In this document: piece after piece, positions 7,641 through 49,300 of the stretch
Layout of the letters: each line of letters opens with the position of its first letter
Numbering within the stretch: position 1 is the stretch's first letter
NCBI GenBank assembly: GCA_000310025.1
Contig: FN649752.1
Span: forward strand, 3,844,346 to 3,908,345
Reading direction: 5' to 3'
Length of the DNA stretch: 64,000 nucleotides
Origin: Ectocarpus siliculosus
Lineage: Eukaryota; Sar; Phaeophyceae; Ectocarpales; Ectocarpaceae
Made by a program: the position numbers and the translations under genes
Notes under the pieces: generated by a model
What the model was told of the DNA's origin: nothing
Database searches by the model: none
What the model saw: only the letters and a program-made list of their open reading frames with translations

Positions 7641-8040
7641 GGGGGGGGGGGGGGGGGGGGCCCCCAAATCGGGGCTGCCCGAATCCAAAAAACCTTTACC
7701 CCCCCTCCCCAAAAAACCGGGGGGGAAACCCCCGGGTTTTCCCCCGAACAGGGTTTCCCATTACCAAAGGGGAAAGGCCCGGGGGGATTTCGGGAAACCC
7801 AAAAAAGGGGGCCCCCCCCCCGCTAAAGGGGTTTCGGATTTTTGGGTTTTTTTCTTTGGGAAGGGAAAAAACCGCGTAAAAATTAAAAAAACCCCGGGGG
7901 GGGGGNNNNNNNNNNNNNNNNNNNNNNNNNNNNNNNNNNNNNNNNNNNNNNNNNNNNNNNNNNNNNNNNNNNNNNNNNNNNNNNNNNNNNNNNNNNNNNN
8001 NNNNNGGCAGGGGTTGGGGGGGTTGGGGGGGGGGGGGCAC
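7641..8040. other. Scaffold gap (N 7906-8005) with low-quality flanks
   Basis: One hundred Ns mark a gap of unknown size. The 265 bases before it and about 35 after it consist of long G, C and A homopolymers typical of unreliable Sanger read ends. Reading frames through it (for example 7303-8046 on the plus strand) are not genes. Confidence 0.9.
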
Positions 8041-9670
8041 TCATAGTCGTGCATGCCGTAGTCGATAGACCATTGACCTCGCATCCCTACAAAGCCGGGA
8101 CGGAGCACGCCGGGTTCTCACCGGACCAGGCTCTCACATCACCAAGCGCGAAGCGCCGTGAGGTATTCGGCGAGTCGCATGAAGGGTGCGCTGCATCCTG
8201 CTAAGGGTGTTCGGCATCTTGTGCTTACTTCCTTGCGTACGGATGACAGCTGCGTATGACTTAAATGACACCGGGGGGGAGGGGGGGGAGAAAACAAGAG
8301 TGGCGGTGATGCCTTTCCCGTGTTTGCGCTTGGATCGGTCCGACAGGGCTGGCTGTAACTCGTGAGTTTGTTCGACATGTTTTCTTCTTTTGGTACCTTT
8401 CTGTGTTTCGGCTGCGAGTGTCTAGCCGTATCTGCACGTGAGGCCGGCATGATCGGAAAACCACGTGTACGTACGACATTGTTGTTCGGATGTCCAGATG
8501 GTTATAGCATATGTATAAGTACCCGAAAGAGGCGACTTTCAAAGCTCGATCGCCCCACAACCAAGATTGTGCCAACACCAAAAATGGTGGTTTAGGAAAC
8601 ACATCGTCGAGGGCGTTCCGTGGAATTATCGGGCTCTTTCCCCACTCCGTTGGTTGTAGAGCAATCACCACGAGTGCCATAGGGCATTCCCAACAACGAA
8701 CGATAGTTCCGGACCTCGGGCATGGCCACGAGGGACTGTAGATCTTGGTCCCGCATCGATACTCTCCGAATTGAGCGAACATTGTGTGGTTGCATGGTCC
8801 TGCCTAATGTAGAAAGGCCAAAACGTTGCCGTTGACAAACAGCTTCACTGCCTGCTTCGGTGACTATTCTCACTCTCGATTCAGAACAGGTCCCGCGCAA
8901 CGAAAGAATACTGTGGTCTGGTGGACGTCAGCTTCATGCGAACGTATCGCTCGTTTCGCCAAGCAGTCCGTAGGTGAGCTAGACGACCAACGAGTTGAAA
9001 GTATGCCCCAAGTATTTGACCGATTTCGAAAACGACCGAAAGAGCACCCAGCGATCAGACATGAGATCAATATCACCAGTTGGCAAGTGTTCCGCAGGAA
9101 GAAAAAACATAGGTGTCGCACAGAGAAGCGCTTGGAACTTGTCTCCACCAGCATATCACGCAGTCCACCTCCACACACCTTCAAGTCAAGACTCACAGTT
9201 GACGCGGCGTGTGCTTGAACATGTTCTCTGCCGAAAAAGGTGTTCGTGTTCGCTGCGAAATCGAAGAGCATGTAAACGAACAGCGGCGTGCGCGTTGGCA
9301 CGCTTACTGTGGGTCTGGTGCTAACGGGGTGCTGTCGAAGGCTGTTCTTCCGCTCCCACAGCCAGCAAATCTGCTTCCGTACCAAATCGATACCGTTCTA
9401 CTGCTGCACGCACCGTCCCAGACCCAACCTTCCGAAGTACAGGTGTATAGCAGTACGTAGGTCGCTCCACAAGCTGTCTTGGACGCACCGCGGTTCAGAC
9501 GATTGGGTCCGTGCTGGCCCACACAGAAGTGGATCGTGAATGGTAGGACCCATTTGCGAACGTGTCGGACCGCAGCTGAGCGGCGGCCTTCGGGTGAGCG
9601 GCCAAACAATATAACCTGGGCGTGCCAATGCGCGCGTCGCTACCCCATCATGTCCTCAATCGATTTAGGA
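8041..9670. other. Intergenic, nothing recognised
   Basis: Frames are short and lack family signatures. The longest (about 8261-8782 and 8870-9385, both minus) have the Cys/Arg/Ser-rich composition of non-coding DNA read by chance. Confidence 0.3.
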
Positions 9671-13240: not shown

Positions 13241-14786
13241 AAACACCTCGTGCGGCATTCGCACATCTCTCAGGCGCTTCACCGGACTCCGGATACGACC
13301 ATCCAGCGCACTCTGTCCCCGACCTCCCAGTACCTGTAAATCCGTGCTTGGGACGTTGCAGGGGCCCGTAAAGTGGACAATGATCGGTGCCAATGTCTCC
13401 TCATTCTTTGCCATTCGATATCGTTGTCATTCATTGCGTTCTCCTTCGACAACGCTAGCGCCCGCACTTGGAGACCTTGGCAGTCAAGAACTTCATGCTC
13501 AATAATATATCAAAACATGAGGACTTGAGCATCATTTGTGAGTGAGTGAGTCCGGGTAAGAAGCCCTTACGACGAAACCTATCTAGCGGCCATTGTAGAC
13601 TAACCTTCATGAAAAAAAACGGCCTCGGCCATACTTGCTGTAGAGGTTTTCAGGTGCGGGTGCTAACGAGTGCAGTAGGAAGAATCCCGTTGTAAGGTGT
13701 GGTAAATAATTAGCGTGTTGGTTCTCCAAGCAAGACATACCATCATCTCAGGGTCCGGTGTAGTCCATTTAGGTACGTACGCCGCGAAGCGAGAACGAGC
13801 ATCCACATCCTTCCAATTTGGTTTATCCTGGACCAACGGGCGCCGTTGTACCGGCATGCAGTATCAAAATCCTGTCGTTCCGTCACACGCCAACCTGCCA
13901 TCTTGAAAAATGTCCTCTCGTCAGAGAAGAAAACATGTACGTACGTACGTCGTCTCTGCGCCTCGTCATGGAAGCGAATATCTCCCTACGAACACACACA
14001 ACATATGATAATGCGTATTTTGGGCCGTTCATAGTTTATTCACCAGATGCATTCCTAGACGTTTTAAACGTGAATCTTGGGATCGCTTCTCAAAGCGTGA
14101 TGGCGTAACCGCCATAATCCTTGTATTTGTTTCATTCAGTACCGGAGCAATGACGGTTTTGGTTTCCAAGCAATGGCTGTAGATCCTTTGAAGAGACCAT
14201 GCGCCGCCTCTGAGGGAAATCAACCCTGTGGTTTGCGCCCAGGGTAGAAATAGCTTACGCTGTTCCATCACCAGTGCCATTTACAGAGTTTTTCTTCCAC
14301 CCTCTCCATTTTTCATGCTGCTCACGGCAGGGAGTTTCAAATTGAATACTCCGTATATCGTAGCTGCCGTTCACGACAGAATGCCCCTGACAACTTCTGA
14401 CTGGCCGCTTCCTTCTCCAGGAGCTTTGCGTCTGTCTATGGTACGGTCGGTTTTTCAGGCGCGGTTACCAATAACATGCGCTGACTTTTCGTTTCTGGCC
14501 GAATATTTCCGCCGCTCGCTATGCATTTTCACACCTATCTGAAACAACGAGCTTCATTGAGTTAAGGTTTGGGAGGCCCTGCTACCCTTCTTGGTTTCAG
14601 CTCTAGACACACCATGCTCCTTTGCATCAATGTACCTGGGATAACTTCAATTTAACAGCACCCCTCTGGGGGGGTACCTACATGATGGTGTGCGGGATGG
14701 CTTTTCACGGGCACCCGTGGATGACGACGGGTTTCAGTTGGTTGGCGGGATGGGTCAGTTTTGTTGGTAGCACAGGCTCCATGTTG

Positions 14787-15128
14787 GGCTACCCCTATTT
14801 GCACGACGCGCGTGCAAATAAGACGTGCACGCTTCGAAACGCCTCCGTGGATGGGTTGAAACTGGGTTATACACACACGCGACCGACCCAACCCAACCCA
14901 ACCCAACCCACCCAACCCAACCCTAACCCTAACCCTAACCCTAACCCTAACCCTCACGGACGTCCAACCGGGGCCGTGGTGGCGAGACTGGCCACGAACG
15001 CGGCTGCGCCACGTTCGTGGTCCGCACGTCAGAACGTGGTCCGCACGCTGCGCGCGCTGTTTTGACCAATCACAAGTCGAGTCGTGCACGGTCTTATTTG
15101 CACTCGCGTCGTGCAAATTGGGGTTGCC
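14787..15128. mobile_element. 342-bp TIR element carrying telomere-type repeats
   Basis: The ends form inverted repeats of about 45 bp, starting GGCTACCCCTATTTGCACGA on the left and, on the reverse complement of the right, GGCAACCCCAATTTGCACGA. The 10-bp target CTCCATGTTG is duplicated (14777-14786 and 15129-15138) and occurs once at the matching place in copy C (22646-22655), a preserved empty site. A target duplication of about 10 bp fits Mutator-like elements. The interior holds a CCCAA-type tract (about 14885-14920), CCCTAA repeats (14921-14954) and a GC-rich part with repeated GTGGTCCGCACG. There is no coding capacity. Confidence 0.9.
14921..14954. repeat. Interstitial telomere-type (CCCTAA)n tract
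   Basis: Five and two-thirds units of CCCTAA lie inside the TIR element and are preceded by a degenerate CCCAA tract. TTAGGG is the common telomere unit of brown algae, stated from general knowledge. Because the tract lies inside a transposed element, it does not by itself indicate a chromosome fusion. Confidence 0.9.
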
Positions 15129-15248
15129 CTCCATGTTGGACTTGTGAGAAACTCATACGGGCTGACACATGTGCATACTAGGTGCGCTATTGTTGCCAGC
15201 ACCAAGAAAAAAGAAGTGAGAAAAGAAAAGAAGAAGAACGAAATAAAT

Positions 15249-21090: not shown

Positions 21091-22762
21091 AAAAGCACTC
21101 TGCGAACGGACACATACATTAGTTATTATAACCTCGTGCGGCATTCGCACATACATCTCTCCAGCACTTCAACGGGACTCCAGGTACGACCATTAATCGT
21201 ACTCTGTCCCCAACCTCCCAATACCTGTAAATCCGTGCTTGGGACGTTGCAGGGACTCGTAACGTCGACAATTATCGGTGCCAATGTCTCCCTCAGTCTT
21301 TGGCAGTTGATATCGTTGTCATTCATTGCGTTCTCCTTCGACAACGCTAACGCCCGCACTTGGAGACCTTGGCAGTCAAGACTTTCATGCTCAACATTAT
21401 GTCAGAACATGAGGACTTGAGCATCATTTGTGAGTGAGTCCGGGTAAGAACCCCATACGACAAAACAAATCTACCGCGTAGAGTAGCCTAACCCTAGGGA
21501 CAAAAAACAGCCTCAGCCCACCTACTGTTGTTGAGGTTCTCAGGTGCGAGGGGTGGTACGAGTGTAGTAGGAAGAATCCCGTTGTTTAGTGAGGTAATTA
21601 GCGTGTTGGTTCTCCAAGCAAGAAATATCATCATCTCAATGTCCGGTGTAGTCTATATCCGTACGCCGCGAAGCGACAACGAGTATCCATATCCTTCCAA
21701 TTTGCTTTATCCTGGACCAAGGGGCGCCGTCGTACCGACGTGCAGTATCAAGTTCTGCCGTTCCGTCTCACGCGAACCTCCCCTCTTGCACCCTTTCCTC
21801 CCGTCAGAAGACAACACGTGCGTAGGCTGTCTCTGCGCCTCGTCATGGAAGCCAACATCTCCTCATGAACACACACAACATTTTAGTGCCTATTTTGGGT
21901 CCTTGATAGTTTGTTCGCCAGATGCGTTCCTAGAAATTATAAATCGTGAATCTTGGGATCGCTTCTCTAGGCGTGGCGGCGTAACCCCCAAAATCCTTGT
22001 ACTTGTTTCATTCAGTACCGGAGCAGATGGCGTTTTTAGTTTCCAAGCAAGGGCTGCAAATCCTCTCAAGAGACCATGCGCCGCCTCTGAGGGAAATCAA
22101 CCCTGTGTTTTTCGCCCAGGGTAGAAATAGCTTACGCTGTTCCATCATCAGTGCCTTTTACAAAGTGTTCTTCGTCCACCGTCTCCATTTTCCACGGTCA
22201 CAAAAGTGATTTCATGTTGTATATAATAGTTGCCGTTCACGACAATGGCCCTGACAAATCTCTCACTGGCCGTTTCCTTCTTCAAGGGGTTTACGTCTAT
22301 TGTATGGTCGGCCCTTCAAGCGCGGTTACCTATAGAACGCGCTGACGTTTCGTTTCTGACAGAATATTTCCGCGGCACGCCATGCGTTTCTAAACCCACC
22401 TGAAACAACGAGCTTCATTGAGTTGAGGTTTTTGGGAGGCCCTATTACCCTTTTTGATTTCAGCTCTAGACACACCATGCTCCTTTGCACCAGACCAATG
22501 TACCTGGGGTAACTCGAATGTAACGGCACGGCGCACCTTCCTGGGAGGGTACCTAGGTGTGCGGGTTGACTTTTCACGGGCTCCCGAGAATGACGACGGG
22601 TTTCAGTTGGTTGGTGAGATTGGTCATTTTTGTTGGTAGCACAGGCTCCATGTTGGACTTGTGAGAAACACATACGAGCTGACACATATGCAACTAGGTT
22701 CGCAATTATTGGCAACACCAAGAAAAAACAAGCGAGAGAAAAGAAGAAGCAGCAAAAGAAAT

Positions 22763-46384: not shown

Positions 46385-49300
46385 TCATCTCAAAGCACCC
46401 CTACAAGTGCGCACCTCGTCAAGCATGACGTCATCTTCACCCACAGGCGCCCTCATCTCGGGACGTGTCACGCAGCCCTTGTCCAGCAGCTCGTCCACCA
46501 CAGCCTCCACGTTCGTCACCACCGCCCCCTGCGGCGCCGCCCCTCCCGCCCTTCCCTCCAGCTCGACCACCGCCTCGAACACCGGCGAGCCCGCGCGTCG
46601 TTCCTTTCGTTCCCCGACGCATGCGTGCAGGTCGTTCGTCGCCCGGAGGGCGTAATGATGAAAAGGTCACCGAGAGTACTGTAACACGTGTCTTGGGGGA
46701 TCTGTGTGCGAATCTATCACTTGTCTGGGGAGTCCGTGCGCAAGTGTTCTCTTAATGGTTCTGGTATACGATCATGTTTCCAGGCGCATGCAACGACACT
46801 CACAAACCTCGGAAAGACCAACCATCTGAGCCACTTGTATTGTCTCCTCGTATGCATAGGTTGAGCTGAGCAAGGTCCGGCGACAGCTCAGCTCGTCGCC
46901 ATCTCTCGACAACTTCTTATCACCGCAACATCGCATGTTGTTCATGTGTTCGGCTATTCGCCAACAAAAAAATCTCCACCGAAACACCAGAAAAGAACAG
47001 AACAGCAATCCGAAGCTTTTGGAATAGACGCCGACAGCAGAACACTACATAGCGTCAAGTTGGACGACCAACAACCCTTCACCATTTGGTCGTCGCTGTC
47101 GTCATCGACATTGGCTGAACGTTGTATATCCTCCAATCCTCCGAGGGCCGCGCCGATTTCCGGGCTGTCTAGAACGTAGGGTAGGTCGCCCACAGCACCG
47201 GCTACAACGCGAATGCCGCTGCGCAGGGGGTCAGTACAGTAAAGGTCGGGAGTGAGGTATGGCGAAAAATGTCCATACAAGTCCTCAGGCAGTATGATTC
47301 GATAGCGCACGCAATTCACGTAGTCTTTATTGATTTTTTATGGCGATGGTGCAGGTTGCCGTGATACATGGCGATACGTTGACTGTTGCTGCTTGGGGAA
47401 AGACCGCTCGGTTGGGCAAACTTGGAGACTTGATCTGCTTCACGGAAAAGAGTACCGACACCACAAGCACTAGCTGTAGCCGTTAACAAAGAGGGGCACA
47501 GCGGCAGCACTACCGCCAATACTCGTAGCCTAGGGGTTGAAAAACATCCAAAGCAGCGGGCAAGCACGTGCGACAAACTCGCGCTATTAATGGCAAATAT
47601 GAGGGTGGGCCTCTTGCAAAACCTCTCTGCGTGTGCTATGAGCTACCGTGAGTGGGTGAAGTAGTTTGTCTCACCGGGCTTTGACCGCCATGCAAGCCTC
47701 GATGTCCAGCTGGGAGGAAATCTCGTCCACCACGATTGTCTGAGGGCTGTGGTTTCGGTAGGCTTGGAGAATGACCCTACCACCACAAAAAAGAGAGTCC
47801 AGGGACGTGGATGCAGCGGGAGAGACGGCAGCGAAAAACAGCATCAGTCCGGGTTCGGCCTTGTTGACATCCCGACGAACGGCGTGCGGCGCAACACGAG
47901 GACCTTGAACGTGTTACCAACGCTTGAGAAGATGGCGGTCAAGCTTTTCTCTACCGCAACCATCCCATGTAGACAATATTGACATGTGCCACAGCATTCC
48001 GTATGGAAGCATGCCTCACTCAACGGCCGATCTCGTTGTCACCGATAGCGAAACTTTCACTACGACGCCGGTGTTGGGTAAAATATATTTTCAACTACAT
48101 GTGAAAAGTTCAACAGGAGCCCCAAGGGGTCAGAGCGGTGCCGCACAATTACCCACGCGGCAAACCCGCCAACCCCATCATTGCAGGCTGGGCAGAACAG
48201 ATCAAGATGCCTGCCCCTCGTACCACGCTCTGTAGAACTCGCGTCAATTCGTAAACCGTCGGGAATCCGTTGGAACCGACGTCGACTTGCACCGCCCAGA
48301 CGAGACCTTTCTACGACGAGAACTAACGAAACGAAACGAAACGAAACGAAACGAAACGAAACGAAACGAAACGAAACCGCTGGGCGAACATCGTCCCGCA
48401 TGCTAGAAAAAGCCAGCACCTATACTTGTAACACTCTCGGACACCGGTGGAGTTCTCTATCGCCGCCATCCGATCCGCCCACAAGGTGGCAACTCAATCG
48501 GGGTCTCATCGGCACGCTCACTCGTGCTGCTGCATCCCTTGCGGGACCATGACCCTGCGGCTCTCTTCCCCGATAGCGCGTCTGTGAGGGACGACGCCGG
48601 CGCCTCCGATGTCGCTCCTCGTGTCCACGATCACCACAGTCTGAAAAAAAAAAAGGCGTCCGTTTCACCGAATGTGCGAAAAGACCGCAACCGAGGGGAA
48701 CGAGACTAACACCAAGGGAGCTAGCTCTCAGAGAGACGCTTGGAAAAGAAAAACAGTGACCCAGACCGCAGAAATATTGCGTTTTTTTTCTGAATGCATG
48801 CAACTGCGGATGTAATTCAATCGCCACCCCTGAGGTACCCTACGCGCCCTCTTTAGGGAAGGTTTCTGGTTTCTTCGTTAACCTTATTCTTAGCCTTCCA
48901 AGGGATCATTTCTGCATACGGTATACAGCAGGGGCGTCGCCGCCCATTCTTCACGTGTCCAGAGGCCACGACAGAAATTGCTGTAGAAACCTGAAGGCAC
49001 ACATCACGACGTACTCGTTTCTGAGGTTTCTCTGGATACTTAGGCATCCACAACGATGCAACCCTCACACCTCGTGGGACGAAAGCTTTCGGCACATGTC
49101 TCGCACGAGCGTCGTCTTCCCGGCTCCGTGCCTACCCAGGACCAGAATCGAAGCCGGCGCCTGGGATGCCCGCTTTCCTGTGTGCAGATTTTGACGCACA
49201 TGCGTTGACATGTTGGGTTGTGAGATTTCAAGCATTTCTCGGCTGCCGTCGCGCCCCTTTCTTCCTCGGACGCAGGTACATTTCCCCCCAGTGCTGTCAC

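What the first reader, a model, noticed from the sequence alone, without database searches (positions are those of the whole stretch)
14777..15138. A 342-bp transposon that carries telomere repeats, with its empty site preserved in a paralogous segment
The element has TIRs of about 45 bp, a 10-bp target duplication and internal CCCTAA and CCCAA tracts. The duplicated segment at 21-24 kb has the unoccupied target, so insertion is shown directly and dated after the segmental duplication. A mobile element that disperses telomere sequence offers a simple source of interstitial telomeric repeats that would otherwise be read as chromosome fusions.
Basis: seen in the sequence. Interest (0 to 1): 0.75.

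Follow-up and report, generated by a model that had tools for sequence, protein, structure and literature searches.

The report
Jumping mini-element carrying telomere repeats
A short, fairly recently active "cut-and-paste" DNA element in what looks like a brown-alga genome carries a stretch of the organism's own telomere repeat inside it, so each jump leaves a small telomere-like tract in the middle of a chromosome that has nothing to do with a chromosome fusion.

Summary
Window 14787-15128 (342 bp) has 38-bp inverted ends and a 10-bp target duplication; the paralogous tRNA-Thr segment keeps the empty site (22646-22655). The 189-Mb genome holds 10 other full-length copies, 2 partial copies and a 53-bp relative. 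All 11 full-length copies carry the CCCAA/CCCTAA tract (2-5 perfect CCCTAA units), so it is ancestral to the family, not local slippage. CCCTAA is this genome's telomere repeat.

The ends point to a Mutator-like (MULE) origin: sister ends head two decayed loci that encode pieces similar to a SWIM-bearing MULE transposase, and a MULE with both ends present has a 10-bp duplication and shares TATTTGCA near the same offset. No intact matching autonomous copy was found.

As a source of interstitial telomeric tracts this family is minor: 1 of 43 tract loci (perfect 24 bp or more) on contigs C1-C11. Four other dispersed families (B, C, E, F) hold 18 more, and one copy of a fifth (D) gained its tract privately. 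A and C have homologous interiors. A control weakens any claim that telomere tracts specially favour such elements: AC tracts also fall partly in repeats, and the difference is not significant. New variant of a known kind.

The parts
14777..14786 (.). left target-site duplication CTCCATGTTG
14787..15128 (+). non-autonomous element (MITE), family A, 342 bp
14787..14824 (+). 5' terminal inverted repeat, 38 bp
14887..14920 (+). CCCAA-type degenerate array
14921..14950 (+). telomere tract (CCCTAA)5, followed by CCCTCAC
14992..15020 (.). GC-rich hairpin CCACGAACG...CGTTCGTGG; region homologous to family C
15066..15072 (+). CCAATCA motif, also seen after the hairpin in most family C rows
   Evidence: by eye
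15091..15128 (-). 3' terminal inverted repeat, 38 bp
15129..15138 (.). right target-site duplication CTCCATGTTG
22646..22655 (.). single, unoccupied target CTCCATGTTG in the paralogous segment
15249..15322 (-). tRNA-Thr (AGT) in the occupied segment
22763..22836 (-). tRNA-Thr (AGT) in the empty paralogous segment

Best explanation
[quoted passage not shown] A Mutator-like transposase supplied in trans cuts it out at its 38-bp inverted ends and inserts it with a 10-bp target duplication; the telomere tract travels as passive cargo and shortens or lengthens by slippage after insertion. Shown: mobility (target duplications, empty site), the tract in every full-length copy, sister ends at loci with MULE-transposase-like coding pieces, interior homology with a second tract-bearing family. 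Inferred: that the MULE moves it, that the tract is passive, and how the ancestor first obtained the tract.
For: Copies and target duplications: 10 other full-length copies plus 2 partial; 9 of 11 exact 10-bp duplications. Empty site. Copies 0.3-4.2% from consensus, the window copy 0.61%, against 17% divergence of the duplicated segments. Tract in 11 of 11 (2-5 perfect units) and lengths vary between otherwise near-identical copies. Telomere identity: CCCTAA arrays at the starts of contigs C56 and C234 in telomere orientation, the second followed by a satellite like the one at L020, L038 and L044. MULE: sister ends on C455 and C15 (96% over 76 query bases) and C54 (93% over 59); piece in L140 39% identical over 209 aa (E 3e-40) and pieces at C455 34% over 152 aa (E 7e-19) and 52% over 52 aa (E 2e-13) to the L135 MULE (repeat of the L140 comparison 40% over 191 aa); L135 has PF10551 at 3.9e-16, 10-bp duplication CCCCATGTTG and TATTTGCA at offset 10 as in family A (shuffle p 0.005).
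Against: No intact autonomous element with family A's own ends was found: the ends with up to 2 mismatches lie nowhere near the 45 PF10551 matches (true ends and MULE matches on a shared contig are at least about 400 kb apart). The C455 and C15 loci each show one end only, the coding pieces lie in opposite orientation relative to that end, the C15 end has a 3-base insertion, and neither the L140 nor the L016 frame gave a Pfam match at E 1; the SWIM match of L135 is below Pfam's cut-off (17.1 against 19.6 bits). The end similarity to L135 is only 8 letters. The ends of families B, C and E were not found on the 12 loci tested.
Confidence: 0.82

Rival explanations
1. The tract was acquired locally in this copy (slippage or telomerase-aided break repair), not carried by the family.
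For: It is exactly what is seen in family D: L017 has a tract of 4 perfect units while 4 of 4 other fetched D copies have none and a few bases in its place.
Against: 11 of 11 full-length family A copies have the tract in the same place at different genomic sites.
Confidence: 0.02
2. The tract-hairpin-CCAAT interior is a shared functional module (binding telomere-repeat proteins, or acting as promoter, replication or fold-back element) that several MITE families keep under selection.
For: Interior of A and C homologous outside the tract: 20 of 25 C rows exceed all of 200 mononucleotide shuffles, 23 of 25 have z of 3.7 or more (rows are related, so not independent). The stem is kept with two pair changes between A (CCACGAACG) and C (CCGAGAACG) (by eye). 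Tract present by a loose test in 16 of 20 C, 10 of 16 B, 20 of 20 E copies fetched.
Against: Homology is also explained by common descent of A and C. Inverted repeats can be kept by template switching. Older C and B copies decay in the tract. AC tracts in the same genome show a comparable tendency to sit in repeats. No expression or binding data.
Confidence: 0.12
3. Family A is a Pack-MULE-like chimera: MULE ends that captured the interior of a family C-type element.
For: A's outer ~50-70 bp resemble the sister MULE ends and the resemblance stops there, while the middle resembles family C (boundaries by eye).
Against: C's ends also carry TATTTACA/TTTTTGCA near the tip and 8-bp duplications, so A and C may simply be diverged relatives; no donor locus was identified.
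Confidence: 0.3
4. The ends belong to another superfamily with 8-10 bp duplications (for example KDZ, hAT or P), not MULE.
For: Duplication length alone is not diagnostic; families B, C and E show about 9, 8 and 8 bp.
Against: MULE-like coding pieces next to the sister ends. KDZ, hAT and P transposases were not searched for.
Confidence: 0.1

Closest known systems
Mutator-like MITEs, e.g. ml-MITEs of pineapple (PMC8449440, abstract and passages seen)
   Same: Short non-autonomous elements with 9/10-bp target duplications, assigned to MULE by duplication and ends, autonomous partner not found there either.
   Different: Those are noted for inserting into (TA)n microsatellites; 'telomer' does not occur in that paper's main text. 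Here a telomere tract is inside the element.
MuDR family of Ectocarpus sp. 7 (PMC12477816, passages and Table 1 seen)
   Same: Same kind of host by inference; the table lists DNA/MuDR with 1 family and 56 copies.
   Different: The passages seen do not mention telomere repeats inside a transposon; the supplementary library was not available, so family A may be in it under another name (e.g. DNA/Unknown).
Short interstitial telomeric sequences attributed to transposable-element insertion or break repair (reviews PMC9693754 and PMC6410037, passages seen; PMC8537989 and PMC7215372, start of abstract in a listing)
   Different: Here the element, its empty site, its copies and the likely transposase lineage are identified. 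Family D's L017 resembles the private-gain route.
Telomere-bearing elements of ciliates (recalled, from no call)
   Same: Transposons associated with telomere repeats.
   Different: As recalled, those carry the repeats at their ends and code for a transposase; here the tract is internal and the element is non-coding.

Membership tests
MITE (miniature inverted-repeat element) | Short (<500-600 bp), non-coding, terminal inverted repeats | tested here: met
   306-343 bp in 11 full-length copies, 38-bp ends; non-coding judged from length and sequence, no protein search of the element made
MITE (miniature inverted-repeat element) | Multiple near-identical copies at unrelated sites with target duplications | tested here: met
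   11 full-length copies, 9 exact 10-bp duplications, 1 of 13 of 14, 1 ambiguous
Mutator-like (MULE) | Target duplication of about 8-11 bp | tested here: met
   10 bp
Mutator-like (MULE) | Ends shared with an element that encodes a MULE transposase | tested here: inconclusive
   Sister ends at C455 and C15 beside pieces similar to the L135 MULE, but both loci decayed, one end each
Mutator-like (MULE) | Mobilised by a MULE transposase | not testable with these tools
   needs a transposition assay
Pack-MULE | Captured fragment of a host gene between MULE ends | tested here: inconclusive
   Interior resembles another MITE family, no host-gene donor looked for
Relic of chromosome fusion | Telomere tract at a junction of formerly terminal, subtelomeric sequence | tested here: not met
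   Tract is bounded by the element's own sequence and the empty paralog lacks all of it
Local slippage product | Tract private to one copy | tested here: not met
   Present in 11 of 11 full-length copies

The most novel reading that the evidence does not exclude
In this alga the telomere tract, GC hairpin and CCAAT-containing core is a selected module shared by several MITE families with different ends, which uses telomere-repeat-binding proteins or the telomere-healing machinery to the element's benefit, and which in turn seeds the genome with internal healing sites.
Probability: 0.1. Interest if true: 0.8.

Novelty: new variant of a known kind. Interest (0 to 1): 0.45.

Why it matters
Short internal telomere tracts are commonly read as scars of chromosome fusion or of telomerase-aided break repair. 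Here is a sequence-level case, with the empty site preserved, in which a DNA transposon family brought the tract, and a partial census in which at least 20 of 43 tract loci lie in dispersed repeats of six families (one by private gain). It gives a practical rule for such genomes: mask MITEs before inferring fusions from short tracts. It also makes testable whether transposon-borne tracts serve as sites of new telomere formation.

Tried and rejected
Local gain of the tract: rejected for family A, accepted for L017 of family D.

Family A as the main source of interstitial tracts: rejected (1 of 43). Three full-length A copies lie on C1-C11 (L003, L006, L008); only L003 has the perfect 24-mer.

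Telomere tracts specially enriched in inverted-repeat elements: not established. Best inverted-repeat score of 33 or more around 7 of 41 telomere-tract loci (one of the 7, L024, is a low-complexity case) against 0 of 20 AC-tract loci (Fisher p 0.08; 6 of 41, p 0.16). Membership in a shared repeat cluster 21 of 42 against 5 of 20 (p 0.10; without the 3 satellite loci 18 of 39, p 0.16), and random 20-locus subsamples of the telomere set gave a mean of 7.3 clustered (range 4-12 in 30 draws). In the earlier run on 53 loci, 1% of random window positions also scored 213 or more, because of real repeats in the window.

A matching autonomous MULE by position: none of 45 PF10551 matches is near the ends; of six MULE loci fetched, only L135 gave ends with an exact 8-11 bp duplication.

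Hairpin covariation by script: the pattern captured 19 of 36 rows, all from family C and none of the 11 A rows, so the A-C stem comparison is by eye.

Genome-wide element counts for B, C, D, E are lower bounds: the tool scored 40 candidates each of 43, 211, 211 and 151; the copies I fetched were taken mostly from the top of each list (20 C, 16 B, 4 D, 20 E), which favours similar copies.

Literature: searches listed no title or abstract start describing a MITE with an internal telomere tract; subscription papers and supplements were not searched.

Full report
1. The element. The finding is real. The element occupies 14787-15128 (342 bp), flanked by CTCCATGTTG on both sides. Inside, a CCCAA array (14887-14920) runs into (CCCTAA)5 (14921-14950), then CCCTCAC, a GC-rich hairpin (14992-15020) and a CCAATCA.

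2. The empty site. A paralogous segment with its own tRNA-Thr has the single target at 22646-22655. With the element and one duplication left out, 1675 aligned positions are 82.9% identical and the junction is gap-free. The window copy is 0.61% from the family consensus. The insertion is therefore much younger than the duplication; I give no absolute date.

3. The family. A genome search (189.5 Mb, 492 contigs) found 10 other full-length copies and two partial ones (L011, L012). Of 11 full-length copies, 9 have an exact 10-bp duplication; L006 has a 13-of-14 flanking repeat; L010 lies in poly-C. L012 has lost everything from its 5' end into the tract yet keeps the 10-bp duplication, and L011 is cut near the other edge of the tract; two cases are too few to call the tract fragile. 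L014 holds a 53-bp relative with a 9-of-10 duplication. All 11 full-length copies carry 2 to 5 perfect CCCTAA units; the longest uninterrupted run is 1 (L006) to 5. The tract is thus ancestral and length-variable.

4. Is it the telomere repeat? Contigs C56 and C234 begin with CCCTAA arrays in telomere orientation, and C234 continues into a satellite also found at L020, L038 and L044. This resembles the description of Ectocarpus telomeres, TTAGGG with a ~98-bp subtelomeric satellite that contains the motif (PMC11541908, passages seen); I did not compare satellite sequences. The window also encodes an EsV-1-7 repeat protein (PF19114, E 7.3e-118), a domain described as proliferated in brown algae (PMC12477816, passage seen).

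5. Mobilising enzyme. PF10551 (MULE) has 45 matches in the genome, none near a family A end. A sister end (GGCTACCCCTATTTG..., then a diverged inner part) heads loci on C455 and C15 (the C15 copy has a 3-base insertion). Both loci contain pieces similar to a MULE at L135: 39% over 209 aa (E 3e-40) at C15 and 34% over 152 aa (E 7e-19) plus 52% over 52 aa (E 2e-13) at C455. L135 has PF10551 (3.9e-16), a sub-threshold SWIM match (0.0041), a 10-bp duplication CCCCATGTTG and both ends; its end shares TATTTGCA with family A at offset 10 (one base earlier at its other end; shuffle p 0.005). Against: C455 and C15 show one end each, the pieces lie in opposite orientation to that end, and neither frame scanned gave a Pfam match. 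I read family A as MULE-derived with good but incomplete support.

6. Other tract-bearing families. The perfect 24-mer (CCCTAA)4 occurs at 316 overlapping places against 3 for the reversed control. The 100 listed places cover contigs C1-C11 completely if the list is in order, as it appears, and part of C12. They form 43 loci on C1-C11, and I fetched the surroundings of all 43. By BLAST clustering and alignment: family A 1 (L003); B 3 (L028, L035, L050); C 4 (L027, L037, L048, L054); D 1 (L017); E 6 (L029, L033, L034, L039, L049, L055); F 5 (L021, L025, L026, L042, L053); subtelomeric satellite 3 (L020, L038, L044); unassigned 20. Unassigned loci were not searched genome-wide, so some may be repeats too. 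Clear inverted ends were found for B, C and D, weak ones for E (by eye). Target duplications are about 9 bp in B, 8 in C and 8 in E (best-fitting lengths plus reading by eye). F is a longer repeat whose kind was not determined.

7. Ancestral or private tract? By a loose test (two consecutive near-units, one perfect) the tract is in 16 of 20 C, 10 of 16 B, 20 of 20 E and 0 of 4 D copies fetched; 15 of 1980 random window slices pass the same test. Copies came mostly from the top of the match lists. Family D is the instructive exception: L017 alone has the tract where its relatives have a few bases, so private gain does happen.

8. A and C share an interior. Outside the tract, the 140 bp after A's tract align to C copies: 20 of 25 rows exceed all 200 shuffles, 23 of 25 have z of 3.7 or more; two (L093, L027) show nothing. 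The best alignments cover about 60 bp. Common descent or capture of a C-type interior by MULE ends would both explain it.

9. The control against my reading. Twenty AC-tract loci (every fourth of the listed places) had 0 of 20 inverted-repeat scores of 33 or more against 7 of 41, and 5 of 20 in a shared repeat cluster against 21 of 42 (Fisher p 0.08 and 0.10); in samples of equal size the telomere set averages 7.3 of 20 clustered (range 4-12). So telomere tracts are not shown to be more transposon-borne than ordinary microsatellites. What stands is that they are transposon-borne in many cases.

10. Verdict. A new tract-bearing MITE family with a directly demonstrated insertion, MULE-like, one of several in this genome. 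The general idea that short interstitial tracts can be remnants of element insertion is in print (PMC9693754 and PMC6410037, passages seen). Searches listed no paper whose title or abstract start describes an internal telomere tract in a MITE; that is weak evidence of absence.

Noticed in passing
   Followed up: partly
L017 (G000:C1:330939-331962): One copy of an abundant TA-flanked MITE (family D) has privately gained a telomere tract with a short internal duplication; 4 of 4 fetched relatives lack it.
   Followed up: partly
L014:824-876: A 53-bp element that is almost nothing but the family A-type ends, with a 9-of-10 target duplication: close to the smallest unit that could still have moved.
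   Followed up: partly
L012 and L011: Truncated family A copies whose breakpoints lie in or beside the telomere tract; L012 keeps its 10-bp duplication.
   Followed up: no
L020, L038, L044, L060: Subtelomere-type satellite containing CCCTAA motifs; L020 (C2 about 8.0 Mb of 9.28 Mb) and L038 (C7 about 0.93 Mb of 2.3 Mb) lie far from contig ends, a candidate for true rearrangement or misassembly.
   Followed up: no
L021, L025, L026, L042, L053: Repeat of over 900 bp (family F), 93-99% identical between copies, carrying a short telomere tract; kind of element not determined.
   Followed up: no
window 8017-8264 and L015:9426-9683: A 260-bp repeat, 91% identical, next to the sister inverted end on contig C54.
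   Followed up: no
L015:1544-6199: Long open frames that look like a copia-type retrotransposon polyprotein (by eye; no family search).
   Followed up: no
window 48325-48377: Perfect AACGA pentanucleotide array, 10.6 copies.
   Followed up: no
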